Shown here in pieces: positions 6,621 to 22,951 of a stretch of 29,643 nucleotides of DNA; the first letter of the stretch is position 1, and each line of letters begins with the position of its first letter. Location: positions 1-29,643 of the IMG/VR virus record IMGVR_UViG_3300031787_000609; one strand, written 5' to 3'. A program made the position numbers and the translations under genes. This DNA comes from a virus. Below the pieces are notes generated by a model. The model searched no databases. It worked only from the letters and a program-made list of their open reading frames with translations, and had not been told where the DNA came from.

Positions 6621-8852
6621 ATGCCATTAGTATTAAGAACAGCTGTAGGTAGAACTACTCCGTTATCCAACACTGAGTTGGATGGCAATTTCACCTATCT
6701 AGAATCATATACTGCTACAAAACTTAGCTCAGCAGATTATAACTATCTTACAATAAGATCAAACTTAAACGCTGCTCCAACAAGTGGTGCTAATAGAGGA
6801 TATGAGTCTGGTTTAGATGTTAGATACTTGCAAGGTCATGAGCCAAACAACGTATTACCTAGCATAACGAATAAGAGTTCGATTGTACTACGTGATGCAA
6901 ATGGAGACTTTACTGCTCGTTATATAACTGCATCCTCTTTCGAAGGTAGATCTACAACATCTGGTGTGGCTGAACAAGCTACTAAACTACAAACCGCAAG
7001 AAAAATTAACGATGTAAATTTTGATGGCACAGCAGCTATCACCATTTATGATAAAACAAAGTTACCTTTAACTACACAATTTGTAGCGACTGCAGTAACT
7101 ATTGGTGTCACATACATTATCGATGAAGTAGGTTCAACAAACTGGGTTGCTATGGGTGCAGCAGCCAGTACTGCTGGTCTTATATTCACATGTACTGCAG
7201 TAGGTGCTGGAACTGGTAAGTGTTCTACAGTAATGTTAGACAAACTAAACCTTGCAGCAACTACAACTGCAAGAGCCAGTATTAGATTGAATCATGGAAC
7301 TGCTCCTACTACTCCACTTAATGGTGATTTTTGGACAACTACTGCTGGGCAGTTTAACTACATAAACGGAAACGTAAAAACTGTTGCGTATACAGATTCA
7401 AACATAACTGGAACATCTAGCAATATCACTGGAGTTGCAGCAATTGCAAACGGTGGTACTGGAAAAACTACAGTAGCTGAAGGGCGTGCTGCATTAGATG
7501 CAGCAAAACGTGGTGCCAACTCTGACATCACATCTATTACAGGATTGACTACTGCACTGGCTACTAGTCAAGGCGGTACTGGAATGGGATCTCCTGGAAA
7601 TACTGGAAACATTCTTATTAGTGATGGATCTATATGGACTACAGCTAAACCATCAGGTAAGTGGGATATATCTATCTCTGGTAATGCTGATACTGCTACA
7701 ATATTAGTATCTAGAGATTCAAGAGATGATGTAACGACTCCAAGCACATTAACTGCCCCTGGCATTGTTTTTGACTTTAAGAAAAATTCGTCTTCAGAAT
7801 TAACTGATGGTGGAGACTACCATGGTCTAATGACTTTCCGTAAATATGGTGCAACAACAGATTGGACAGGTGGTAAATCTCATCAACTTGGATTCACTGA
7901 TAACAATAACTTGTTTATTAGAAGCGGTACTTTAGCCACTTGGGGTGCTTGGCACAAGTTTGTTACAAGTGATAACATTGATGATTATGCTCCATCAAAG
8001 ACTGGTAGTGGTGCTTCTGGCACATGGAGTATTAACGTATCAGGAACTGCTGCGTCAGCAGGTACTGCTACATCAGCTAGTTCTGCTACTCTAGCAGCTA
8101 GTGCAACTAAGCTAGCAAACAAAAGAAAAATCAATGGTGTAGATTTTGACGGTACTGCAGATATTACAATTTCTGACTCTAATGCACTCGCAAACGATGG
8201 TGGTACTTCTACTGGCAATATCACAATCAAAAATACCCAACCTACATTATTTTTAGATGATACTAATTCAGAGGGTGGTGGTATTGAACTTGCTATCTCG
8301 GTTCAAAATGAAAGTTTTATCATTTATGAGCCAGATGCTAGTGATGAAGAGTGGTTTCGTATTAACGACACATCATTTGATGAACCAGCTGGTGGTCCTG
8401 CTGGCGCCTATGTGCGTGGACAACATATCTTAGATGCAAGCAATTACACTACCTATGTTCCATCAAAGACTGGTAGTGGTGCTTCTGGCACATGGAGTAT
8501 TAACGTATCAGGAACTGCTGCGACAGCAACCAAACTAGCCAATGCAAGAAAAATCAACGGTGTTGCTTTTGATGGTACTCAAGATATTAGTATTAGTATT
8601 CCAACATCCGCATTTGCTTCTGACGTTTACTCTTGGGCAAAGGAAGCTACTAAACCTAGCTATTCTTATTCTGAAATAACTGGCACTAAACCTAGCTATT
8701 CTTATTCTGAATTGACTGGAACTGCACCAACGTTTAATCAAGACACAACTGGTAACTCGGCTAATGCACCAAAATGGGATGGAGCGAAAAAATATGTACA
8801 GTCATCAGAACCATCTGGTGCAGCAAATGGTGATATCTGGTTTAAGGTATAA
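6621..8852 (+). CDS. Tail fibre protein with repeated beta modules
   Basis: 743 residues; RBS AAAGG about 9 bases before the ATG. The N-terminus (PLSNTELDGNFTYLE) matches the short motif found at the start of many phage fibre proteins, and a related motif starts the 1111-residue fibre downstream. Three copies of the classic fibre repeat ATKL-x-x-x-RKIN-x-x-x-FDGT-x-x-I lie near nt 6980, 8105 and 8525. GGTG motifs occur near 7450 and 7570. A segment typical of long tail fibres (GLMTFRKYGATTDWTGG, HQLGFTDNNNLFIRSG) spans about 7820-7940. A small GSTNW/GAA/GTG module lies at 7080-7236. A 64-base exact repeat and a 36-base tandem repeat fall in the 3' half. The C-terminus is short and has no S74 chaperone. 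Virion localisation as a trimeric fibre is inferred from these families. Confidence 0.85.
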   Translation: MPLVLRTAVGRTTPLSNTELDGNFTYLESYTATKLSSADYNYLTIRSNLNAAPTSGANRGYESGLDVRYLQGHEPNNVLPSITNKSSIVLRDANGDFTARYITASSFEGRSTTSGVAEQATKLQTARKINDVNFDGTAAITIYDKTKLPLTTQFVATAVTIGVTYIIDEVGSTNWVAMGAAASTAGLIFTCTAVGAGTGKCSTVMLDKLNLAATTTARASIRLNHGTAPTTPLNGDFWTTTAGQFNYINGNVKTVAYTDSNITGTSSNITGVAAIANGGTGKTTVAEGRAALDAAKRGANSDITSITGLTTALATSQGGTGMGSPGNTGNILISDGSIWTTAKPSGKWDISISGNADTATILVSRDSRDDVTTPSTLTAPGIVFDFKKNSSSELTDGGDYHGLMTFRKYGATTDWTGGKSHQLGFTDNNNLFIRSGTLATWGAWHKFVTSDNIDDYAPSKTGSGASGTWSINVSGTAASAGTATSASSATLAASATKLANKRKINGVDFDGTADITISDSNALANDGGTSTGNITIKNTQPTLFLDDTNSEGGGIELAISVQNESFIIYEPDASDEEWFRINDTSFDEPAGGPAGAYVRGQHILDASNYTTYVPSKTGSGASGTWSINVSGTAATATKLANARKINGVAFDGTQDISISIPTSAFASDVYSWAKEATKPSYSYSEITGTKPSYSYSELTGTAPTFNQDTTGNSANAPKWDGAKKYVQSSEPSGAANGDIWFKV
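6665..6683 (+). other. 7-bp hairpin near the start of the fibre gene
   Basis: ATCCAAC pairs with GTTGGAT across the 5-base loop ACTGA. It begins at base 45 of the gene. Two flanking U-G wobbles could lengthen the stem. No U-tract follows. Confidence 0.5.
7991..8054 (+). repeat. 64-base direct repeat, copy 1
   Basis: Identical over 64 bases to 8459-8522. It encodes PSKTGSGASGTWSINVSGTA within the 743-residue fibre. This is a familiar fibre repeat unit. The perfect nucleotide identity suggests a recent duplication or gene conversion within the gene. Confidence 0.9.
8459..8522 (+). repeat. 64-base direct repeat, copy 2
   Basis: Identical to 7991-8054, same reading frame, 468 bases downstream. 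Both copies are followed by an ATKLAN-x-RKING-type repeat, so the duplicated protein unit is longer than the exact DNA match. Confidence 0.9.
8649..8720 (+). repeat. Tandem 36-base repeat, two units
   Basis: Units at 8649-8684 and 8685-8720 differ at only a few bases near their ends and encode TKPSYSYSEITG and TKPSYSYSELTG. This repeat precedes the C-terminal domain of the fibre and probably adds one turn of a beta-structured shaft. Confidence 0.85.
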
Positions 8853-8855
8853 CAA

Positions 8856-10268
8856 ATGATACAATTTCAGTATAGTGGTTACACTAGAGCAGTAACGGTT
8901 CTGAACACATCTAGAGTTTACTACACGTTAATTGGCGGTGGTGGTGGAGGAGGAGGAAACGACTCTTCTGCTGGAACTAGAGGAACTTCTGGTGGTAAAC
9001 TTGGTGGATACATAGATGTTGAAAAAGATGATGTTTTATATGTAGCAGTAGGTGGTGGTGGAGGAGCAGGTGGATCTGGCAGAGGAAATGCACTTGGTGG
9101 GTATGGAGGTTATTCTTTAAGAGGCTTCGGTGGTGGATATGGCGGTAATGCGGGTGCATATGGAAGCTCAGGTGCAGGCGGCGGTGGAGGTGGTGCCACT
9201 GTTTTATATAAAAAATCTGGAAATACAAGAACCACTATTGGAGTAGCCCACGGAGGTGGTGGAGGTGGTGGTGGTGGAAATGGAGTTCCTGGGTCATTTG
9301 TAAGCGACACTTTCTTCGCATCCTCGGCTGCAACCATTCCTTCATCATACGCCCCCGCACCACAACATGGTGAATATTCTGCAATAGCTAATAGTTATGG
9401 TGTGCAGATTTTCTCCTCTAGAAATAACACATGGAATAGACTTTCTTGGGCATATAATGCTCCTACCACTGGCACGTATACTCTTCGTTATAGTGTAGAT
9501 AACTATGGACACTTTTATGTTAATGGTTATATAGTAGCAACTTCACCAACATGGGGTAACGAAAGTGAACCTAGAAATCATTCTAGTTATGTGGAAAGTT
9601 ATATTTACTTAAACGCTGGTATTAATATACTCTCAGCAACTTATGCAGATCTAGGTCGAGAACATATGGTTGCTGCAGCAATTTATAATTCTAGCATGAA
9701 TCTTGTTTGGACTACAAGAGATGCAACTAATAAAAATTTAGTTCCTACTATGGGTTCGTCTGGACAGGCACAGCGTGGAGATGGTGGCGGTGGTGGCGGT
9801 GGCGGTGGCGGGGCAACTGGCGGCGCTGGTGGTAGAGTCGCTGGCGATGAAGACTATTCGCACTATATCTATGGTGGACCAGTTGGGTCAGCAGATTGGG
9901 GTGGAATGTCTGGAAGTCCAGGATATTCCTTCAACACATCAGGTACTTCATACTCAGATGGCGCTGGTAATGGAACGATGAAACTTTCTTATGGAACATA
10001 TGGTCAAGCCACAGAGAACGGATCTTCTGGTTATGCTGCGCTCTACTCTAAAGATTCTAAATTGGCTGTATTATCTGGCTCTAGTTGGAAACCTATCTAC
10101 GGCGTATATATTAAACAACCAACATACTGGGCAGAAGCAAAGCAGGTTTATGTGAGAAAAGACAACGCATGGGTTAGTGTATATGGTGACAATATACCAA
10201 GCAGCGAATATTCATCGGAGCCTTTTGATGGTTCATCTTGGGGTGAACGTACATATACACAATATTAA
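8856..10268 (+). CDS. Glycine-rich adhesin-like protein (candidate receptor-binding tip)
   Basis: 470 residues; starts four bases after the fibre stop, RBS AAGG at 8844-8847. Residues 1-25 (QFQYSGYTRAVTVLNTSRV) lead into polyglycine runs: YTLIGGGGGGGGND, VAVGGGGGAGGSG, AGGGGGGATV, HGGGGGGGGGNG, and a long run near nt 9778-9815. A segment of roughly residues 148-305 has ordinary composition (YTLRYSVDNYGHFYVNG, GREHMVAAAIYNS) and looks like a beta-sandwich, perhaps carbohydrate-binding, inserted into the glycine-rich lattice. The C-terminus (SSWKPIYGVYIK, KQVYVRKDNAWVSVYGD) is a motif pair common at ends of phage tail proteins. Glycine-rich motifs of this sort form polyglycine-II helix bundles in gp38-type adhesins of T-even-like phages. 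I infer a host-recognition role from this and from its place directly after a fibre gene. Direct homology to gp38 is not shown. Confidence 0.75.
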   Translation: MIQFQYSGYTRAVTVLNTSRVYYTLIGGGGGGGGNDSSAGTRGTSGGKLGGYIDVEKDDVLYVAVGGGGGAGGSGRGNALGGYGGYSLRGFGGGYGGNAGAYGSSGAGGGGGGATVLYKKSGNTRTTIGVAHGGGGGGGGGNGVPGSFVSDTFFASSAATIPSSYAPAPQHGEYSAIANSYGVQIFSSRNNTWNRLSWAYNAPTTGTYTLRYSVDNYGHFYVNGYIVATSPTWGNESEPRNHSSYVESYIYLNAGINILSATYADLGREHMVAAAIYNSSMNLVWTTRDATNKNLVPTMGSSGQAQRGDGGGGGGGGGGATGGAGGRVAGDEDYSHYIYGGPVGSADWGGMSGSPGYSFNTSGTSYSDGAGNGTMKLSYGTYGQATENGSSGYAALYSKDSKLAVLSGSSWKPIYGVYIKQPTYWAEAKQVYVRKDNAWVSVYGDNIPSSEYSSEPFDGSSWGERTYTQY

Positions 10269-10336: not shown

Positions 10337-13300
10337 ATGGCACAGTTAAATCTTAGAAACGCTATCGCAGCTGGATTGACAAATACCCAGATAGATAACA
10401 ACTTCACGTCATTGCAAAGAGACGACACACTTACAGTTTCTAATGCTGTTGCGTGGGCACCTAGCACTGCATATACACTAGGTCAAATTCTTTATACTTT
10501 AGAATCTGTATATCCAGGTGGTGTACAAGAATCTATGGGATTCTTGAAAACTGGCGTATCATACACAACAACTGTAGCTGCTAGAAGTAATCTTTCTACT
10601 GTTACAATTTCAGGTACAGCTGGTCAATTTACATGCGCTACAGAAACCCTTTCTGTTGGTATGGCAGTTAACATCACTGGAACTAATACTGGAACTGGAT
10701 CTATCACAGGATACGATCCTACCGCAATTAACGTATATTATATTATTGGAACTCCGACTAGTACGACGTTTACACTTTCTGCCACTCCTGGTGGAACTGC
10801 CATAACAACTACTGCTGGAACACCAGCAGGATTAACGTTTACCAGATCTGGCGCTTTCACTGCAGCTGGTGCGCCAAATAACTTTATTGGTACAGTCTTT
10901 ACTGCAACTGGCGCTGGTGTTGGTAGCACTGGTACTGCAACTCGCGTAACTAGATTTTATCAAGTAACTACTGCTGGAACAACATCTACTACTGCACCAA
11001 ACTGGTTAGCACCAACAAGTTCTACATCTGGAACTGCAACATTACTTGCTATTGATCTACCTCCAGCATATCTTCCATTAGATGTTTTAGATAAAATTAA
11101 ATTAGTTGATGGTGCTGGATCTGCATTAGATGCCGACCTTTTAGATGGACAACAAGGCAGTTATTACTTAGATACTAGCGCTACTGCACAAACGAAAACA
11201 GGTGACTTGACTATTGCAGGTAACCTAACTGTTAATGGAACTACTACAACAATAAACTCATCTACCATTACAGTAGATGATAAAAATATTGAACTTGGTT
11301 CAGTTAGTGGAGTAGCAGGGCTTATTGCAACATTAGCAACTGGAACTGCAGTTGTTACATTAACTACAGGAACAACTAGAGGTTTAATTCCTGGACAAGC
11401 ATTAACCAAATCAGCTGGTACAGGTGTGTTTGGCACAACTCCTGTAATTGCTACTATTGATAGCCTAACACAATTTACAGCATCTGTTAACCATGCAACG
11501 GCAGGATCAATTACGTTTGACGCTGGTGGTGTAACTGATACTACTGCCAATGGTGGTGGTATTACGCTAAGAGGTGCTACAGATAAAACATTCCAGTGGC
11601 TAAGCACTACTGCTGCATGGACTAGCAGCGAGGATATAAATCTCGTTACAGGTAAAGTCTACGAAATTAACGGAACTACAGTATTAAGTTCAACTGCTCT
11701 TGGCTCTGGCGTAACTGGTTCTTCTCTAACTTCTGTTGGAACTATTGGAACAGGAATCTGGCAAGGAACTTCTGTTGCAGCAGCATACGGTGGTACTGGA
11801 CAAACAAGTTATGCTATTGGTGATTTATTATATGCCACAAGTTCAACTGCATTAGGAAAATTAGCTGATGTAGCTACAGGAAATGCTTTACTTTCTGGTG
11901 GTGTAGCTACAGCGCCATCTTGGGGTAAAGTTGGTTTAACTACTCATGTTTCTGGAACACTTCCTATTGCTAACGGTGGTACTAATAGTACTACAACTCC
12001 AACTAACGGTGGTGTTGCATATGGAACTGGCACTGCACTAGGTTATTCTCTAGTTGGAACTGCTGGTCAATTTTTAAAATCTGCCGCAGCAGCTGCTCCA
12101 GTATGGGCAACTTTGCAGATGACAGATATTCCAGATGCTGCATTTAAGAAATCAGTCACGGTTGCAACTACAACAGATCTTGCAGCTAGCAGCTGGACTA
12201 CAGCTGCTAGTGGAACATTAAGCGGTTATTCTGCCAGTGCTTCTCTTGCTGTTACAACTACTCTGAGTTCTACAACTGCTACTACTACAAGCACATCAGG
12301 TATTAAAGTTGGAGCAACAATTTCTGGTAATGCGAATATTCCAGGTGGCGCAACTGTAACTGCAATAACTAACGCTACAACATTCACTCTTTCTGTAGCT
12401 GCTACTGCAGCAGCATCGGCAGTAACTACAACATTCACAAACACTATTGCAGCTCTTTCAATTGACGGTGTTTCAGTTGCAGTAAACGATAGAGTTCTAG
12501 TTAAAGATCAATCTACTCTTGGTGGTATAGCAGATGCAACTGCAGCAGCAAAACATGGTATCTACACTGTATCTGCAATTGGGTCAGCATCAGTACCTTG
12601 GGTTTTAGTTCGTGCCGTTGATGCAGATGTAAGTAGTGAAATTTCTTCTGCCATAGTTGCTGTTGATAATGGCACCGTTAATGGTTCAGATTTATGGACT
12701 AATACATTTAGAGTAAGTGACACTCTCAATACCACTGCTATGAATTGGTATGAGATATTATATAATTCTGGAAGCTGGGCAATATCAACAACAGGTTCAG
12801 CTGCAACACTAACTACTTCAAGAACTCTTTGGGGGCAATCATTTAACGGATCTGCCAACGTTACAGGGGCATTGTCTAGCGTAACAACCATTGGTATGTC
12901 TGGTCAACTGACCAACACACAGGCAACTGGTAGTGCACCATTCGTGATAACTTCTACTACTAGAGTAGCTAACCTAAACGTAGCTACTGCTGGTACTGCT
13001 GATACACTAACTACCGCTAGAACAATTAACGGAACTAGCTTTAACGGTAGTGCAAACATTACTACCACAAACTGGGGTACTAGTAGAAACTTAACTATTG
13101 GTGGAACAGCTAAAGCAGTTGATGGTTCTGCCGCTGTGTCTTGGTCTTTGGCAGAAATTGGTGCTCTTGCTTTAACTGGTGGAACAATAGCAACAACTAA
13201 CAGTTCAGCGTCATTAACTATTTCTGATACTGGAACTAGCGGTGCCAACATAAGACTGACAGGCAACGGAGCTACAACACCAAGCAAAACCATCAGAGCC

Positions 13301-13672
13301 TCATCTGGTGAACTTCAAGTAGTAAATAATGCTTATTCAACAGTTATACTTTCATTAACTGATGCTGGAAATCTTACTGCAGTTGGTAACGTAACTGCTT
13401 ATTCTGATGCTAGACTAAAGACTGATCTAGAAGTTATTACTGGTGCTCTTGATAAAGTAGAACAACTAACTGGTTATGTATACACTAGAACTGATAGTGG
13501 TGAAAGACAGACTGGTATTTTAGCTCAAGATGCATTAAAGGTTCTGCCAGAAGTCGTTAATACTAACGGTGAATACTACTCTGTTGCATACGGTAACATG
13601 GCTGGTCTTATTTTTGAAGCAATCAAAGAATTGCATGCAAAAGTTAAAGATCTTGAAACTAAAATAAAATAA
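10337..13672 (+). CDS. Tail fibre with C-terminal S74 intramolecular chaperone
   Basis: 1111 residues. The N-terminus (GLTNTQIDNNFTSLQ) is the short motif shared with the 743-residue fibre. The shaft contains several phage modules: a YYIIGTPTSTTFTLSATPGG unit (nt 10598-10850), two SGTGVF- or ATTFTLSV-type units (11321-11530 and 12241-12440), GGTG motifs near 11790 and 11975, a VNDRVLVKDQST / HGIYTV module near 12480-12760, and two TARTINGTSFNGSANIT-type fibre repeats. The last 91 residues match the peptidase S74 (endosialidase-type) chaperone: SDARLKTD with predicted nucleophile Ser1023 and Lys1028, then GILAQDALKVLPEVV and a terminal coiled coil. In this family the domain guides trimer folding and then cuts itself off just before the serine. 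The mature fibre would thus be about 1022 residues. Confidence 0.88.
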   Translation: MAQLNLRNAIAAGLTNTQIDNNFTSLQRDDTLTVSNAVAWAPSTAYTLGQILYTLESVYPGGVQESMGFLKTGVSYTTTVAARSNLSTVTISGTAGQFTCATETLSVGMAVNITGTNTGTGSITGYDPTAINVYYIIGTPTSTTFTLSATPGGTAITTTAGTPAGLTFTRSGAFTAAGAPNNFIGTVFTATGAGVGSTGTATRVTRFYQVTTAGTTSTTAPNWLAPTSSTSGTATLLAIDLPPAYLPLDVLDKIKLVDGAGSALDADLLDGQQGSYYLDTSATAQTKTGDLTIAGNLTVNGTTTTINSSTITVDDKNIELGSVSGVAGLIATLATGTAVVTLTTGTTRGLIPGQALTKSAGTGVFGTTPVIATIDSLTQFTASVNHATAGSITFDAGGVTDTTANGGGITLRGATDKTFQWLSTTAAWTSSEDINLVTGKVYEINGTTVLSSTALGSGVTGSSLTSVGTIGTGIWQGTSVAAAYGGTGQTSYAIGDLLYATSSTALGKLADVATGNALLSGGVATAPSWGKVGLTTHVSGTLPIANGGTNSTTTPTNGGVAYGTGTALGYSLVGTAGQFLKSAAAAAPVWATLQMTDIPDAAFKKSVTVATTTDLAASSWTTAASGTLSGYSASASLAVTTTLSSTTATTTSTSGIKVGATISGNANIPGGATVTAITNATTFTLSVAATAAASAVTTTFTNTIAALSIDGVSVAVNDRVLVKDQSTLGGIADATAAAKHGIYTVSAIGSASVPWVLVRAVDADVSSEISSAIVAVDNGTVNGSDLWTNTFRVSDTLNTTAMNWYEILYNSGSWAISTTGSAATLTTSRTLWGQSFNGSANVTGALSSVTTIGMSGQLTNTQATGSAPFVITSTTRVANLNVATAGTADTLTTARTINGTSFNGSANITTTNWGTSRNLTIGGTAKAVDGSAAVSWSLAEIGALALTGGTIATTNSSASLTISDTGTSGANIRLTGNGATTPSKTIRASSGELQVVNNAYSTVILSLTDAGNLTAVGNVTAYSDARLKTDLEVITGALDKVEQLTGYVYTRTDSGERQTGILAQDALKVLPEVVNTNGEYYSVAYGNMAGLIFEAIKELHAKVKDLETKIK

Positions 13673-16627: not shown

Positions 16628-19600
16628 ATGGCACAAGGTTCTTCAAACCCAACAACAGACATTAAAAAGGTTGCTGGCACAGCAGTCGATACAAACACAG
16701 GTAATGCTTCTGCAGGAACGCAACGTGTAGTTCTTGCATCTAACCAACCAGTTATTCCTGTTTCAGATAATGGTGGTTCAATCACAGTTGATGGTACTTT
16801 CTGGCAAGCAACACAACCAGTATCTGGTCCACTAACAGACACTCAATTACGAGCTAGTGCAGTTCCTGTTTCTATTGCATCTGTTCCATCACATGCAGTT
16901 ACAAACGCTGGTACATTTGCAGTTCAAGTAGATGGTGCTGCATTAACAGCATTACAACTTCTTGATAATGCTGTTGCAACAGACGGTTCAGCAGCTGTAA
17001 CTGGCATGTTCCAGGTTGGTGGTACTGATGGTACAAACGCTCAGATTTTATCTACAAACACATCTGGTCATGTAAACATTGCAGATGGCGGCAACTCTAT
17101 TACTGTCGACGGTACACTTGCATCAACCCAGTCTGGAACATGGACAGTTCAACCAGGCAATACTGCCAACACTACTCCATGGTTAGTTAAGCCAGCAGAA
17201 TCTCTTGGCACTGCTACTGCTCTTGGTGCTCTTAACGCAGAAATCGTACAAGCACTAAACGGAAATCTCGGAGCAGGTGCTACCATTACCGCTACCGCAA
17301 CACCTGTTGGGGTAACGTTAACACCATATGCGTCTTACGATGGTGGAACTAACTGGACAGTAACTCAATTCTTTAATTCTGTTAATGGCGACGTCGTACC
17401 TACTTTAACATCATTTACTGTAGGCGAAGCATATTCGTTGTCTGCTGGTGATGGCGCAACACACGTTAAAGTCAGAGCCACAGGTTGGACTAGTGGTAGT
17501 GTTACTGTTAGATTATCTGCAAGTAACTCTCAAGGCTTAGTCAACTTAAAGGCGACTGCAACTCATGACGACCCAGTTGGTTCATTCATTATTCAAAATG
17601 GTGCTTACGCTTCATCCACTGCTCCATCTGCTGTTGCAAACGGAGACGCTGTTCGTTTATGGGCAACTACCTCTGGTGCATTGAATATCGCCGATGGTGG
17701 CGGTAACATTTCTATTGATGACGGTGGAAACAGTATCACTGTTGATGGTACTGTTACTGCTAATGCTGGTACTGGTAACTTTACAGTTACGCAAGCTACA
17801 GCTGCCAACTTGAATGCTACTGTTACAGGTACCGTTGAACTTGGAGCTACTTCTCTAGCTGCTTTGGAAAACATTAGCGTAACAGTTCCAGGTACAGTTG
17901 ATCTTGGTACAGTTTCATTAACAGCACTAGAAACAATAACTGTTACATCAGGCACTCCTAATAACTTTCAAAGTAAAGCATATGGTGCCGTAACCACAGC
18001 TGCACCAGCATATACAAATGCTACAGATAATGCATTGAGCTTAACTACCAGTGGTTCATTACGCACTGCAGTTTCTGAAGCATTACCTGCAGGTACCAAT
18101 AATATCGGTGACGTTGATGTATTATCTGTAATTCCTGGAACTGGCGCTACAAACTTAGGTAAAGCAGTTGACAGTGCATCAGCTGCAACTGATACAGGTG
18201 TTGCTAGTTTAGCAATAAGAACAGATACTTTAGCAACAATAACTCCTGCTGTTAGTGATTACACACAATTGAGAGTTAACTCAGTTGGCAGACTTTGGGC
18301 ATCTGCAACAATTGATGCTGCACTACCAGCTGGTACGAATGCTATTGGTTCTATTACTAATACGTCATTTGCAGCAACACAATCTGGAACTTGGACAGTA
18401 CAGCCTGGAAATACGCAAAATACTACGCCATGGCTTGTAACTTCTGGCGCAACATTGGGTACGCCATTTATCTCCTCAATTGCACAGGGTGCTACTGCTG
18501 GAACTGTTCCATCTGGTTTGTATTACTTTAGAGTAGTCGCTGTAGATGCTTTTGGTGGTACCACTCTACCAAGTTCAGAATCAAGTGTGACTGTCACTGG
18601 TCCTACTTCAATCAACTTGCAAGTACAAGCGACCAATATTCCTGGTATAGACCATTATAGAGCATACTTTACCACAACTTCTGGTAACTATACTAGTGGT
18701 AATTACATTAGGTTTGAATCATACTATACTACAATCACTTCTTTGAGTGGTACAGCAAGTGCGACTCTACCCACTGCAAACACAACTTATGACAGCAGAA
18801 ATAAAGAATTAGCTTCATCCAACGATCCGAATAATAGCACTGTTATTAACCTTGCTGGCAATGCGGTATTTACAGGTAATACTACTGATATTTCAGAATT
18901 TTCTCAGATTTCTTTATCGGTATATTCATCCCATGCATCAGCGACTGATGGTCTTTCTTATCAATTCTCTCAAGATGGTACTAATTGGGATCAGGTAAAT
19001 ACAGCAAGCGTATTAGCTACAACTGAGCTATCGATCATTCTTGCTAGTAGACTTCGTTATTTTAGACTCGTTTATACTAACGGTGCTACCACTACTACAA
19101 CATTAAGAATACAAACTCGTCTATGGAGAACCAGTTCTCCATCTACTATTAAAGAGTTAGCATTAGCAACAAAAGAGCAAGATTTAGTAACACAGACTCG
19201 TTCTGTATTGACTGGAAGAAACGTACCAGCTGGAACTACATTTAATGATGTAGTTGTCAAACCTGCTTCTACTGCCGCTGCCGCAACTGATACTGCCTTA
19301 GTTGTTGCAGTTAGAGATTCAGTACCTGTTACTGGAACCTTTTACCAAGCAACACAACCAGTATCATTAGCTTCTGTTCCATCTCACCCAGTAACGAATG
19401 CTGGCACTTTTGCAGTTCAAGTAACATCGGCTCCAACTACTGCAGTAACTGGCACTTTCTGGCAAGCAACACAACCAGTATCTGGTACAGTTACAGTAAA
19501 TCCACTCCCAACTGGAACGAATTCAATTGGTAAACTTGCTGCTAACTCTGGTGTCGATATTGGTGACGTTGATGTTTTATCAATCGTACCTGGAACTGCT

Positions 19601-22600
19601 GCAACCAACTTAGGTAAAGCAGTAGACGGTGTTGCTGGTGCTACAGACACTGGTGTTATGGCACTTGCAGTTAGAGATGATGCTTTAGCTACATTAACAC
19701 CAATAGATGGCGACTATACGCAACTAAGAGTTACTTCTCAAGGTAGATTGTGGGCATCGGCAACGATTGATGCTGCGCTACCAGCTGGTACAAATGCTAT
19801 CGGTTCTATCACTAATACTACTTTCTCTGTTACTAATGCGGTTGCTACTAACTTAAAGGTGGAAGCTCAACAAGTACAAGGTTCTGCAGCCACTCGTTGG
19901 TATACACAGATATCCGATGGTACCAATAGTCCAGCTATTAAAGCAGCATCTACTGCAGCAGCTACTGCTGATCCTGCGATGGTTGTATCTTTCGCTGCTG
20001 CTAACTCTGCTACTAAGATTAGCGATGGTACTACCACTGCTACAGTTAAAACTGCTATCACCGAACCAGCGTTTGGTCTTGATACTGCACTTACTGTACA
20101 GACTCGTGATCCAGTTCGTATTCGTCCTTCAGAAACTTATCGTGACCCAGTTGATAAGATGCGTGTTTCTATGGGTCAGTCTCTTATCGATACTGACTTT
20201 GAATATGGTATTCAGCCAACTAAGTGGGAGAGTTTGACACTACTAAACAATAGAGCTACAGCTTTCTACGATGTAACTCAAGTTGTTCCTGGTGTTATCA
20301 ATACCACAACAGTTAGTGTTGGTAATATAACAGCATCTGGTAAAACTGTTACAGTTACTGGTAATAACTTCAATGGCGCATTCGTTGTTGGTCAGCCGTT
20401 TTTTATAACTGGCACTTTAGATACTGCCAACGCAGATGGTTGGTGGATTGTTGATTCTGTAGTTTCCAATACACTGACTTTCTTAGTTAATAATGCCCCA
20501 GCAGCTAGTCTTTATGACGCTACTAAAACTTACATATATCCAGGCACATTCTTTACTGGTTCCAGTATAGCTCTTCCTTCTAATACTACAATTGCAGCTA
20601 CAGTTGCTACTGCTGACACTGTAGGTAACTTTACTTGTGGTGCTACAGCAACTCTTGCAGTTGGTAATCCAGTTTATGTAACTGGCACTAACTCTGGTAC
20701 TGGTTCTATCTCTGGTTATGCTTCAGGTAACGTTTATTATATTATTGCAACTAACGGTTCTACTACATTCCAACTATCTGCAACTCCAGGTGGTGCAGGA
20801 GTAACAACTGTTGCTGGTTCATTAACTGGTTTATCATTCTCTATGAATGCTATTACTGTAACTGGTACTACTGTTATAGTTAGAACTTTAGCAGACCATG
20901 GATTGCGTGTTAACAATGGCATTTATATGAAAGGCACTACTGGTGTCACTGGCGGACCAGTTAATGGTACTTGGAATATTGCCACAACACCATTAAATAA
21001 CGTATTTACTTATACTACTAATGCAACTGCAACTGGTGCGATTACTGCTTCAGCTGGTGTAAGCGCAACTCTATATCCTCGTCAACCTGGATATATTGAA
21101 CATCGTCCATATGATGGTGGTGTTCAATTCTCTAACGAAACTGCGTATCATGGATATTCTGATATCCGTCAAACACGTCGTTACTTCCGTTATCAATCTG
21201 GTAAAGGTATTCAGTTCTCAACTGGTACTATCATGAAGCCACCATTCTATGTCGATCAGTTGACATCTTCTGGCACTACTGTCACTGTTACTACTAAGTA
21301 TCCTCATGGATTATTAGTTGGTTCAACTGTAATTGTTTCTGGGGCTACTCCAGCAGCATATAATGGAACTTTTACAGTCACTGCTTCTACACCATTAACT
21401 ATCACTTACACAGCAGGTTCTGCACCTGGAACTTCTCCTGCCACTGGATTCCCTATTAACGTTAGCCCTGGAACATGGTACGGTGGTTCTAACCGTGTTG
21501 GTATGTTTGACCAACAGAATGGATTCTTCTTTGAATTTGATGGACAGACACTATATGCTGTAATTAGAAAGTCAACAGATCAAATTTCTGGTAAGGTTGG
21601 TGTTACTTTAGGTAGTCAAACTGTCACTGGAACTAATACGTTCTTTGCAAGTCAATTAAAACCTGGCGATCAAGTTGTTATCCGTGGTATGGCTTATCTT
21701 GTTCAAAACATTCAAAGCAATACATCTATGACAGTATATCCAGAATATCGTGGTGTTACTACTTCTAATTGCATATGTACTAAAACAGTTGAGATTAGAA
21801 CTTCACAATCTGGGTGGAACATTGATACTGTCAACAGCGGAACACGTTCTTTAACTAACCCAAATGGTTTCCAATTAGACTTGACTAAAATGCAGATGTT
21901 CTATGCTGATTATAGCTGGTATGGTGCTGGTGCTGTTCGTTTTGGTTTCAAAGATCAACGTGGTGAAGTTATTTTCTGTCATCGTGTTGTTAATAGTAAC
22001 GTTAACTACGAAGCATATATGCGCTCTGGTAACTTACCAGCAAGATATGAAACAAATACTCTTCCTGCAAGAACTCACTTGACAGCAACATTAGCTGCAG
22101 CAACTACTACTGGTGGCACTATTACTGTTGATGCAACAACATTATTCCCATCAAGCGGTACTGTAATCCTAACGCAATCTACAGCAACAGGTGCATACTC
22201 TGAATATATCACATACTCAGCTAAAACTGCTACCACTTTCACTATCACTGCTCGTGCACAAACTGGTGGTGTTGGTACTGCGCAAACCTTTACTTATAGT
22301 GCAACTGCTCCTATTAAAGTTGAACTATATGCCCCACAAGCTGCTCAAACTCTAAGTCACTGGGGTTCTTCTGTTATTATGGATGGTGGATACGATGACG
22401 ATAAATCTCTGGTGTTTAACACTGGTATGACTACACCTATGGTAACAGCCACAGCAGGAACTCGTTATCCACTAATGAGTTTACGTTTAGCTCCTACTGT
22501 AGACAATGGTATAACTGGTCTACTTGGCGCTCGTGAAATTATTAACCGCATGCAATTAGCTTTAAGATCTATCGGTACTTATACAACTAACGTAGCGTTC

Positions 22601-22951
22601 CGTATTGAAATTTTACTTAACGCTCGTGTTAGCGGTGGAACATTTGCTCCTGTTGGTGGTTCTAGTTTATCACAGATCTGTTATCATACAAATACACAGA
22701 CGGTGGCTGGCGGTGAGTCAATGTTTGCGTTTTATGCAACTGCAAACGACACCAACTCTATGGACTTAGAACAGGTTCGAGATCTAGGTACTTCTATTCT
22801 TGGCGGTGGTACTACTCTATCATTCCCTACTGGAAATAATGAGAAGTATCCAGATGGTCCAGATATTGTTACCGTTATTGCTATTCCACTAACATCAAAC
22901 GCATCATCAAGTATTGTGGCTAGATTGAACTGGACAGAAGCTCAAGCGTAA
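16628..22951 (+). CDS. Giant fibre/adhesin-like virion protein
   Basis: 2107 residues, starting one base after the upstream stop, RBS AGAGG. The N-terminus (KKVAGTAVDTNTGNASAG, QRVVLASNQPVIPV) is a motif seen in large aquatic-phage structural proteins. About nt 16790-19820 is built of imperfect repeats: TFWQATQPVSG three times, SGTWTVQPGNT twice, and a segment of about 95 residues twice (18083-18364 and 19505-19819). An interposed region at about 18440-18800 (SGLYYFRVVAVDAFGGTTLP) looks like a fibronectin-type fold. The C-terminal third starts at about 20120 (DKMRVSMGQSLIDTDFEYGI, QPTKWESLTLLNN) and includes a YYIIATNGSTTFQLSATPGG module, two HGL-type modules, and a conserved-looking end (FYADYSWYGAGAVRFGF, NYEAYMRSGNLPARYE) known from T4-like aquatic phages. 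No chaperone domain is seen. I infer a large appendage whose C-terminal part is conserved and whose N-terminal part varies. Confidence 0.82.
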   Translation: MAQGSSNPTTDIKKVAGTAVDTNTGNASAGTQRVVLASNQPVIPVSDNGGSITVDGTFWQATQPVSGPLTDTQLRASAVPVSIASVPSHAVTNAGTFAVQVDGAALTALQLLDNAVATDGSAAVTGMFQVGGTDGTNAQILSTNTSGHVNIADGGNSITVDGTLASTQSGTWTVQPGNTANTTPWLVKPAESLGTATALGALNAEIVQALNGNLGAGATITATATPVGVTLTPYASYDGGTNWTVTQFFNSVNGDVVPTLTSFTVGEAYSLSAGDGATHVKVRATGWTSGSVTVRLSASNSQGLVNLKATATHDDPVGSFIIQNGAYASSTAPSAVANGDAVRLWATTSGALNIADGGGNISIDDGGNSITVDGTVTANAGTGNFTVTQATAANLNATVTGTVELGATSLAALENISVTVPGTVDLGTVSLTALETITVTSGTPNNFQSKAYGAVTTAAPAYTNATDNALSLTTSGSLRTAVSEALPAGTNNIGDVDVLSVIPGTGATNLGKAVDSASAATDTGVASLAIRTDTLATITPAVSDYTQLRVNSVGRLWASATIDAALPAGTNAIGSITNTSFAATQSGTWTVQPGNTQNTTPWLVTSGATLGTPFISSIAQGATAGTVPSGLYYFRVVAVDAFGGTTLPSSESSVTVTGPTSINLQVQATNIPGIDHYRAYFTTTSGNYTSGNYIRFESYYTTITSLSGTASATLPTANTTYDSRNKELASSNDPNNSTVINLAGNAVFTGNTTDISEFSQISLSVYSSHASATDGLSYQFSQDGTNWDQVNTASVLATTELSIILASRLRYFRLVYTNGATTTTTLRIQTRLWRTSSPSTIKELALATKEQDLVTQTRSVLTGRNVPAGTTFNDVVVKPASTAAAATDTALVVAVRDSVPVTGTFYQATQPVSLASVPSHPVTNAGTFAVQVTSAPTTAVTGTFWQATQPVSGTVTVNPLPTGTNSIGKLAANSGVDIGDVDVLSIVPGTAATNLGKAVDGVAGATDTGVMALAVRDDALATLTPIDGDYTQLRVTSQGRLWASATIDAALPAGTNAIGSITNTTFSVTNAVATNLKVEAQQVQGSAATRWYTQISDGTNSPAIKAASTAAATADPAMVVSFAAANSATKISDGTTTATVKTAITEPAFGLDTALTVQTRDPVRIRPSETYRDPVDKMRVSMGQSLIDTDFEYGIQPTKWESLTLLNNRATAFYDVTQVVPGVINTTTVSVGNITASGKTVTVTGNNFNGAFVVGQPFFITGTLDTANADGWWIVDSVVSNTLTFLVNNAPAASLYDATKTYIYPGTFFTGSSIALPSNTTIAATVATADTVGNFTCGATATLAVGNPVYVTGTNSGTGSISGYASGNVYYIIATNGSTTFQLSATPGGAGVTTVAGSLTGLSFSMNAITVTGTTVIVRTLADHGLRVNNGIYMKGTTGVTGGPVNGTWNIATTPLNNVFTYTTNATATGAITASAGVSATLYPRQPGYIEHRPYDGGVQFSNETAYHGYSDIRQTRRYFRYQSGKGIQFSTGTIMKPPFYVDQLTSSGTTVTVTTKYPHGLLVGSTVIVSGATPAAYNGTFTVTASTPLTITYTAGSAPGTSPATGFPINVSPGTWYGGSNRVGMFDQQNGFFFEFDGQTLYAVIRKSTDQISGKVGVTLGSQTVTGTNTFFASQLKPGDQVVIRGMAYLVQNIQSNTSMTVYPEYRGVTTSNCICTKTVEIRTSQSGWNIDTVNSGTRSLTNPNGFQLDLTKMQMFYADYSWYGAGAVRFGFKDQRGEVIFCHRVVNSNVNYEAYMRSGNLPARYETNTLPARTHLTATLAAATTTGGTITVDATTLFPSSGTVILTQSTATGAYSEYITYSAKTATTFTITARAQTGGVGTAQTFTYSATAPIKVELYAPQAAQTLSHWGSSVIMDGGYDDDKSLVFNTGMTTPMVTATAGTRYPLMSLRLAPTVDNGITGLLGAREIINRMQLALRSIGTYTTNVAFRIEILLNARVSGGTFAPVGGSSLSQICYHTNTQTVAGGESMFAFYATANDTNSMDLEQVRDLGTSILGGGTTLSFPTGNNEKYPDGPDIVTVIAIPLTSNASSSIVARLNWTEAQA
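18083..18364 (+). repeat. ~95-residue internal repeat, copy 1
   Basis: It begins LPAGTNNIGDVDVLSV and ends RLWASATIDAALPAGTNAIG plus SITNT. The same order of motifs (GDVDVLS, ATNLGKAVD, ATDTGV, DYTQLRV, GRLWASATIDAALPAGTNA) recurs at 19505-19819. DNA identity is partial, so the duplication is not recent. Confidence 0.85.
19505..19819 (+). repeat. ~95-residue internal repeat, copy 2 (with a short insertion)
   Basis: It begins LPTGTNSIGKLAANSGVDIG, with about 10 extra residues relative to copy 1, then follows the same motifs through to AALPAGTNAIGSITNT. Confidence 0.85.

What the first reader, a model, noticed from the sequence alone, without database searches (positions are those of the whole stretch)
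8856..10268. Glycine-rich adhesin interrupted by a lectin-like segment
Polyglycine runs of 5-11 residues flank a ~155-residue segment of normal composition (about nt 9300-9775) with YTLRYSVDNYGHFYVNG, a pattern reminiscent of jelly-roll or PA14-like sugar-binding folds. In gp38-type adhesins glycine-rich strands form polyglycine-II bundles with short receptor-binding loops. Replacing a loop with a whole domain would be a different recognition design.
Basis: partly seen in the sequence, partly recalled or inferred. Interest (0 to 1): 0.55.

Follow-up and report, generated by a model that had tools for sequence, protein, structure and literature searches.

The report
Phage fibre-tip adhesin carrying lectin-like domain
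An uncultured T4-like phage makes a glycine-rich protein, probably the tip of its tail fibre, with a whole sugar-binding-type domain built into one of its loops; a related phage has the same protein without the domain, so phages may change hosts by swapping such domains.

Summary
ORF 8856-10268 (470 aa) has glycine runs of 5, 6, 8, 9 and 10 residues flanking a 156-residue segment (aa 147-302, nt 9294-9761) with 6% glycine.

The segment is best read as a PA14/CBM-like beta-sandwich: AlphaFold2 core strands mostly at pLDDT 70-85, PDB matches mostly sugar-binding domains, and profile homology to cyanophage PA14 proteins. It falls below Pfam's PA14 cut-off and has Asp-Asn where calcium-binding PA14 lectins have Asp-Asp.

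The scaffold is not gp38-like. It resembles the TNF-like/glycine-rich domain of ALK, the fold published for myocyanophage Pam3 fibre gp24. Locus L059, in a like gene order, has the scaffold without the insert.

A C-terminal module with three tryptophans 14 residues apart is homologous to the N-terminal module of glycine-rich proteins that follow fibre genes in Rhizobium and Pelagibacter phages.

Best explanation: a monomeric cap on the trimeric fibre, displaying a lectin-like head. The insert is 40% identical between the two insert-bearing lineages; the VrlC-like protein and the fibre are 86% and 82%. Sugar binding and tip location are inferred. New variant of a known kind.

The parts
6621..8852 (+). 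tail fibre gene, 743 aa; the probable carrier of the adhesin
   Evidence: PHROG tail fibre matches, best E 1.8e-26; full-length relatives in L002-L004
8769..8849 (+). C-terminal fibre tip, ...KWDGAKKYVQSSEPSGAANGDIWFKV
   Evidence: like ending in L004 and L059; similar endings in unrelated phages, 5 of 12 loci fetched followed directly by a glycine-rich ORF
8856..10268 (+). glycine-rich fibre-tip adhesin, 470 aa
8856..9293 (+). N-terminal scaffold (aa 1-146): predicted beta-strands alternating with Gly runs, TNF-like/glycine-rich fold
   Evidence: Pfam Gly_rich_2 E 2.2e-4, below cut-off; ALK by sequence E 5e-4 single, 1.5e-5 profile; two shuffled controls negative for ALK; Foldseek of a low-confidence model
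9294..9761 (+). inserted PA14/CBM-like beta-sandwich domain (aa 147-302)
   Evidence: absent in L059
9498..9503 (+). Asp215-Asn216, at the place of the Asp-Asp pair seen in several cyanophage PA14 repeats
   Evidence: alignments; residues
9762..10049 (+). C-terminal part of the glycine-rich scaffold (aa 303-398), 10-Gly return run and last predicted strand (aa 393-397)
10077..10187 (+). three-tryptophan module (W411, W425, W439), proposed cap on the trimeric fibre
   Evidence: hhalign score 51.1 against best of 100 column shuffles 14.9; HMM hits
10337..13672 (+). downstream fibre with Peptidase_S74 intramolecular chaperone (context)
   Evidence: Pfam E 1.7e-12

Best explanation
ORF 8856-10268 is a receptor-binding protein that caps the distal end of the trimeric fibre encoded just upstream. 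Its C-terminal module of three tryptophan repeats binds the three-fold-symmetric fibre tip, so one adhesin chain sits on three fibre chains (inferred). The middle of the protein is a TNF-like beta-sandwich whose loops run out as parallel polyglycine-II stems, as in Pam3 gp24 and ALK (supported by sequence and by a weak model). One stem pair (the runs at aa 133-141 and 310-319) does not end in a short loop. It splits to hold a complete PA14/CBM-like beta-sandwich at the distal end (fold supported; position inferred from the order of strands and runs). That domain is the receptor-binding head and most likely binds a cell-surface glycan (inferred from the fold).
For: Insert fold: model pTM 0.62, core strands mostly at pLDDT 70-85. 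The 50 PDB rows shown are mostly sugar-binding or glycosidase-linked domains: CBM35, CBM6, MpPA14/MhPA14, Flo1/Flo5, Epa1/6/9, Pleurotus lectin. VIA: phage Chi tail tip Z 11.1, rhamnosidase module 10.1, Pleurotus lectin 9.6. Best viral match is named 'Glycine-rich domain-containing protein', E 1.1e-6, rmsd 1.8 over 98 columns. Homology: phrog_773 E 8.7e-6; insert profile against cyanophage PA14 repeats 65.1, 100 column shuffles at most 18.3. Scaffold: seven ALK sequences at 1.5e-5 to 3.1e-5; the first 21 Foldseek rows are ALK or LTK entries. Optional insert: L059. Attachment module. Divergence, window against L004: VrlC-like 86.0%, fibre 82.4%, S74 fibre 72.4%, whole adhesin 53.9%, phrog_1084 protein 54.1%; leaving out window Gly positions the insert is at 38%, the other three adhesin regions at 44-56%. 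Literature passages: distal tips of the Pam3 gp24 glycine-rich domain proposed as receptor sites; mutations in the like domain of Klebsiella phage TFP_Y restored sensitivity of bacteria to the phage.
Against: The Pfam PA14 score of the window insert is 14.6 against a cut-off of 24, and the L004 insert alone gives no PA14 match. By plain tblastn the insert reaches no phage record below E 0.2 and the L004 insert none below E 1. The Asp-Asp calcium motif reads Asp-Asn. TM-scores of the insert's PDB matches are low (0.32-0.53 by query length), and most VIA rows have Z of 7-8, which the tool warns may mean only a common arrangement. The full-length model is poor (pLDDT 41), its ALK matches have TM-scores of at most 0.31, and AlphaFold may recall ALK structures. 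The L004 adhesin alone finds no PDB chain at E<=1. Few lineages are known: two with the insert and one without. The phrog_1084 protein is as divergent as the whole adhesin, and with gaps counted the adhesin's C-terminus is as divergent as the insert, so divergence alone does not prove receptor pressure.
Confidence: 0.65

Rival explanations
1. Fibre-tip adhesin as above, but the PA14-like insert is not a lectin: it recognises a protein, or is a spacer, and the short glycine-stem loops make the specific contact.
For: Asp-Asn instead of the Asp-Asp calcium motif (motif). Komagataella PA14 adhesins KpFlo4a-f that lack the motif are described as apparently without C-type lectin function.
Against: Many of the best fold matches (CBM35, CBM6, Pleurotus lectin) bind sugars; that they do so without a PA14-type Asp-Asp is recalled, not tested. 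The insert is more divergent than the scaffold.
Confidence: 0.2
2. The protein is not at a fibre tip but is another virion component (baseplate or whisker decoration) giving weak reversible attachment.
For: I know of no proteomics or structure for this uncultured phage (not searched for). Homologous PA14 proteins of cyanophages lie in stretches with no annotated tail gene, near psbA/psbD, nrdC or purM.
Against: It starts 3 nt after a fibre gene with the shared ending and carries the three-Trp module that other phages have on proteins next to fibres.
Confidence: 0.12
3. True gp38 homologue: beta-helix plus polyglycine sandwich with an enlarged loop.
For: Same gene position after a fibre gene, Gly-rich motifs with variable segments between them.
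Against: No gp38 chain among the PDB sequence hits at E<=1, while ALK is found; the first 21 Foldseek rows are ALK or LTK and no S16 gp38 is in the 50 shown; attachment module C-terminal and predicted beta, not an N-terminal helical bundle.
Confidence: 0.05

Closest known systems
Pam3 gp24 / ALK TNF-like plus glycine-rich (TG) domain
   Same: Beta-sandwich strands continuing into stacked glycine-rich loops; scaffold aa 26-138 aligns to ALK at E 1.5e-5; the model's best PDB matches are ALK and LTK; Pam3 gp24 is a myocyanophage fibre from Lake Chaohu that its authors liken to ALK.
   Different: Pam3 gp24 is itself the trimeric fibre, with short distal loops and a chaperone; here the adhesin is a separate gene, has a three-Trp module, and one loop holds a whole domain. 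Pam3 gp24 was not returned by the PDB sequence searches nor among the 50 Foldseek rows shown.
T-even/S16/PP01 gp38 adhesins
   Same: Separate gene after the fibre gene; glycine-rich motifs; variability at the tip; three Trp contacts with a trimeric fibre in S16.
   Different: S16 gp38 has an N-terminal helical attachment domain, a beta-helix and short hypervariable loops; here C-terminal attachment module, TNF-like scaffold and a 156-residue insert.
PA14 / GLEYA / CBM35 sugar-binding beta-sandwiches (MpPA14, Flo5, Epa1)
   Same: Predicted beta-sandwich fold.
   Different: Below the Pfam cut-off; Asp-Asn instead of Asp-cis-Asp.
Cyanophage PA14-domain proteins (phrog_773: S-RIM8, ACG-2014b, P-SSM7)
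   Same: Homologous over about 70 residues (hhalign 96.7%); the window copy shares their N-L-V/I-W-T/S-T-R-D-A-T end, the L004 copy does not keep it.
   Different: Free-standing multi-domain proteins in stretches without annotated tail genes, and without the glycine scaffold.
RTX adhesin 'split domains'
   Same: Ligand-binding domains, including carbohydrate-binding modules, project out of a split host domain.
   Different: Bacterial surface adhesins with mostly Ig-like split domains; here the split host domain is a phage polyglycine scaffold.

Membership tests
PA14 (PF07691) | Pfam gathering score 24 bits | tested here: not met
   14.6 bits, E 0.03 for the window insert; no PA14 match for the L004 insert
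PA14 (PF07691) | PA14-like beta-sandwich fold | tested here: met
   MhPA14 6m8m E 4.8e-4, Flo5 5.6e-4, MpPA14 6x8a 2.0e-3, Epa1 by Foldseek, TM-scores 0.35-0.48; VIA Z 7.1-7.4 for MpPA14/Flo1/Flo5, a middling value. Fold only; CBM35/CBM6 and lectin folds score as well.
PA14 (PF07691) | Asp-cis-Asp calcium/sugar motif (PMC6218569, PMC8092209) | tested here: not met
   Asp215-Asn216 at the aligned place; L004 also has D-N
PA14 (PF07691) | binds glycans | not testable with these tools
   needs protein
TNF-like/glycine-rich (ALK, Pam3 gp24) | sequence similarity to a solved member beyond glycine composition | tested here: met
   ALK E 1.5e-5; with Gly fixed and other residues shuffled, no ALK at E<=10 in 2 of 2 controls. 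Against: L004 alone none; neither the invertebrate ALK 7LIR nor Pam3 gp24 is in the sequence lists
TNF-like/glycine-rich (ALK, Pam3 gp24) | TNF-like sandwich with stacked polyglycine loops | tested here: inconclusive
   first 21 Foldseek rows are ALK or LTK, but mean pLDDT 41
Gly_rich_2 (PF21722) | Pfam gathering score 24.3 bits | tested here: not met
   21.7 bits, E 2.2e-4; not found in the L004 or L059 adhesins
gp38 adhesins | separate gene directly after a fibre gene | tested here: met
   gap 3 nt in the window, 2 nt in L002/L004, 6 nt in L059
gp38 adhesins | N-terminal helical attachment domain | tested here: not met
   N-terminus predicted as strands from residue 2 in a low-confidence model; attachment-like module is at the C-terminus
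gp38 adhesins | beta-helix plus polyglycine sandwich | tested here: inconclusive
   no gp38 match by sequence or in the 50 Foldseek rows shown; the model is weak

The most novel reading that the evidence does not exclude
Phages with an ALK-like polyglycine scaffold use it as a 'split domain' socket at the fibre tip: complete, independently folding lectin domains are gained, lost and replaced at one distal loop, giving host switching by domain insertion instead of by mutation of short loops. The cap module that holds the adhesin on the fibre can sit at either end of the chain.
Probability: 0.4. Interest if true: 0.65.

Novelty: new variant of a known kind. Interest (0 to 1): 0.5.

Why it matters
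The polyglycine tip adhesins described in the papers seen here (S16 and PP01 gp38, Pam3 gp24) are thought to read their host through short variable loops. Here a natural pair, with and without the domain and in a like gene order, suggests that a whole sugar-binding-type domain can be plugged into one loop. It links three separately known parts: an ALK-like glycine scaffold, a lectin-like fold, and a three-fold attachment module that recurs beside fibre genes in unrelated phages. It gives a directly testable rule for finding receptor-binding domains in uncultured phages.

Tried and rejected
No relative found: tblastn of the whole protein in phages, tblastn-confirmed scans of viral contigs with the protein, the insert and the scaffold alignment, the insert alone against PDB sequences, NCBIfam for the insert and the whole protein, the insert alignment in genome contigs. 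BLAST's low-complexity filter probably hides the scaffold. tblastn of the insert in phages at E<=10 gave 48 records, best E 0.2, mostly cyanophages; four were Mycobacterium phage records, and Phelemich's protein was not found again by the insert profile (phmmer E 0.076). A scan with the insert alignment returned only the three contigs already known. A DNA pattern for RYDGGG[A/G]GGGG matched 5 contigs: the three with the insert, the L059 contig without it, and one unrelated, L116. This small survey found no further insert types.

Rejected: the phrog_773 label 'major head protein' for the insert. The matched cyanophage proteins are 'PA14 domain-containing', numbered or hypothetical in depositors' records and 'major head protein' in several RefSeq versions. 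Rejected: a homology claim for the fibre tips of haloviruses HF1 and HRTV-16 and Enterococcus phage Aramis. The 29-aa tip query matched inside their genes, not at the ends. Tip matches have E of 0.1-9, so they count only together with gene order. A regular-expression count of three-Trp modules was weak: 9 hits against 2.45 expected, at least two of the hits spurious on inspection. The HMM and hhalign tests replaced it. An A8 profile search of the PDB gave engineered TPR proteins and one enzyme, taken as chance. The Paso adhesin found no gp38 chain by sequence, although its record cites HHpred similarity to the S16 receptor recognition protein. No photosystem gene (PF00124) was found in the four related contigs searched, so the host is not settled.

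Literature: no held paper has all of PA14 domain, tail fiber, phage and glycine-rich. With 5 of 6 broader terms only PMC13243795 appeared, and it has no PA14. 'PA14 domain' with 'cyanophage' gave one paper, not on adhesins. This covers open-licence PMC only. Papers were seen as search listings and found passages, none read whole: PMC12892980, PMC8651126, PMC6851490, PMC9608196, PMC6218569, PMC12077191, PMC13243795, PMC12671077, PMC10605310, PMC7468147, PMC8092209.

Full report
WHAT WAS CHECKED. The window is a 29,643-base IMG/VR virus record. It carries T4-like tail and packaging genes: a VrlC-like protein (phrog_358, E 1.9e-288), fibres, a head-tail adaptor, head closure, tail sheath stabiliser and terminase. 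The VrlC-like protein's best-ranked isolate matches are Synechococcus phage BUCT-ZZ01 (35% identity over 70% of the query) and Pelagibacter phage Mosig (37% over 46%), both listed under Kyanoviridae. The host is not settled. The finding's ORF 8856-10268 is real and has the composition described.

THE PROTEIN RECURS. The upstream fibre has 78%-identical full-length relatives in three contigs, one of 168 kb. In each the next ORF is a 475-aa protein with the same glycine runs and the same kind of segment, starting 2 nt after the fibre in the copy examined. Identity to the window copy by region, gaps counted: N-scaffold 66%, insert 40%, C-scaffold 59%, C-terminus 40%. Leaving out the window's Gly positions and gaps: 56%, 38%, 44% and 48%. 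Neighbouring proteins: VrlC-like 86.0%, fibre 82.4%, S74 fibre 72.4% of aligned residues, phrog_1084 protein 54.1%. Within the insert, predicted strands are 46% identical (26 of 57) and the rest 37% (37 of 99).

A RELATIVE WITHOUT THE INSERT. Locus L059 lies in a like order: a VrlC-like C-terminal part and an S74-like fibre (both recognised by eye), a fibre ending NGDFWFKI, the glycine-rich protein, and a phrog_1084-type protein (found). It has the scaffold and the three-Trp module. Between the two glycine runs it has 35 residues where the window has 168 (aa 142-309). Direction of change, gain or loss, is not known. The L059 protein instead continues into two stretches with Hint/intein-like Pfam matches.

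THE INSERT. Pfam PA14 gives E 0.03 and phrog_773 E 8.7e-6. A profile of the two inserts finds three cyanophage PA14 proteins at E 1.1e-7 to 2e-9 among 3,472 ORFs. Those three, and a Mycobacterium phage protein that the profile did not find, had been chosen by an earlier BLAST with the insert, so this is not independent. Seven contigs were then fetched by a DNA motif for the shared NLVWTTRDAT end; five gave hits at E 4.3e-8 to 1.6e-4 and two gave none. One of the five is S-RIM8 again, and two share one domain sequence. Profile against profile: score 65.1, 96.7%, 71 columns, with 100 column shuffles at most 18.3 and the reversed alignment 15.5. AlphaFold2 with six rows gives eight strands, mean pLDDT 57.5 and pTM 0.62; blocks within residues 51-145 reach 71-85, apart from 91-100 (45), 121-130 (61) and the end (57). 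Foldseek and VIA place it among PA14, CBM35/CBM6, Flo/Epa and rhamnosidase-type modules, with a phage Chi tail-tip domain best by VIA (Z 11.1). The best viral model is another 'Glycine-rich domain-containing protein'; I did not obtain its sequence. It suggests the combination exists elsewhere. PA14 lectins use an Asp-cis-Asp pair to hold calcium; the window has Asp215-Asn216 there, so calcium-dependent binding of the classical kind should not be assumed.

THE SCAFFOLD. The single sequence finds seven ALK sequences in the PDB at 5e-4 to 1.1e-3 and the three-row profile finds seven at 1.5e-5 to 3.1e-5. The alignment joins GGGGGG-ATVLYKK...IGVA-GGGG to the ALK stretch of the same pattern. Two controls with glycines fixed and other residues shuffled give no ALK hit even at E<=10. 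The full-length model is weak (pLDDT 41), yet its first 21 PDB rows are all ALK or LTK, with low TM-scores over 136-159 columns. Against: the L004 protein alone finds none, and Gly_rich_2 stays under its cut-off. The myocyanophage Pam3 fibre gp24 has this TNF-like plus glycine-rich fold, was compared by its authors to invertebrate ALK, and is proposed to read receptors with its distal tips. In a Klebsiella phage fibre likened to Pam3 gp24, mutations at two residues of the glycine-rich domain restored sensitivity of bacteria to the phage; its authors ask for further validation. In the window protein a predicted strand pair (aa 115-131) leads into the run at 133-141, then the insert, then the returning run at 310-319. 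The insert is therefore expected at the far end of one stem pair (inference).

THE ATTACHMENT MODULE. Trp 411, 425 and 439 lie exactly 14 apart and are kept in L004 and L059. The module matches the N-terminal module of glycine-rich proteins that directly follow fibres in Rhizobium phages Paso, RL2RES, P10VF and RHph_Y48 and Pelagibacter phage HTVC023P: hhalign score 51.1, 97.5%, 100 shuffles at most 14.9, reversed 16.6. An HMM made only from those five hits six other ORFs among 4,422 at E<=0.05. These are the window copy (1.6e-4), the L002 copy (1.1e-8), L059 (0.009), one ORF of Ochrobactrum phage vB_OspM_OC and two of Methylophilales phage MEP402, all near or at the C-terminus except L059, where more sequence follows. 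Fibre endings of the type PSGGxDGD(I/V/T)W occur upstream. Of 12 loci fetched (of 31 records matched by the tip), 5 have a glycine-rich ORF (20-27% Gly) 3-9 nt after a fibre with this ending. Two haloviruses have a glycine-rich next gene, but the match lies inside the fibre gene. Five have a next ORF that is not glycine-rich, and in one of these (Aramis) the match is also inside the gene. Three pseudo-repeats suggest one adhesin capping a trimer. S16 gp38 does this with three Trp on helices; here the module is predicted beta in a low-confidence model, so this is likeness of working, not membership.

VERDICT. Shown: composition, recurrence, absence of the insert in one relative, greater divergence of the insert than of the scaffold and fibre. 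Supported by prediction and homology: fold of the insert, fold of the scaffold, identity of the module. Inferred: tip location, one-on-three stoichiometry, glycan binding. The design is a new variant of a known kind: a polyglycine tip adhesin whose reading head is a lectin-like domain.

Noticed in passing
L059:5706-7829 (+), residues about 390 to 707: The insert-free relative of the adhesin continues into two stretches with Hint/intein-like Pfam matches (Vint E 1.7e-10, Intein_splicing 7e-7), each ending near HNK; self-processing of a fibre-tip protein would be unusual. L054 ORF 17094-18869, another protein directly after a fibre, also ends in a Hint-like stretch by eye.
   Followed up: partly
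cyanophage records NC_020486, NC_047718, NC_015290, NC_031242: PA14-type proteins carry the RefSeq/PHROG label 'major head protein', which looks like a propagated misannotation.
   Followed up: partly
window 10337-13672 versus L004 9467-11650: The downstream S74 fibre is 384 aa longer in the window than in its relative (1111 against 727); the ends align well and the middle is replaced or expanded.
   Followed up: no
168-kb contig of L004, positions 131086-132699 (-): A second protein with two Gly_rich_2 matches (E 8.2e-13 and 6.8e-6) in the same genome, in an 826-codon open frame outside the adhesin locus.
   Followed up: no
L105:3253-4376, L104:3060-3668: Non-glycine-rich proteins near fibre genes (MEP402, Ochrobactrum phage OC) carry the three-Trp module at their C-termini, so the module may be a general marker of fibre-cap adhesins.
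   Followed up: partly
window 16628-22951: A 2107-aa ORF matching phrog_5838 'virion structural protein' (E 2e-212) lies beyond the fibre cluster.
   Followed up: no
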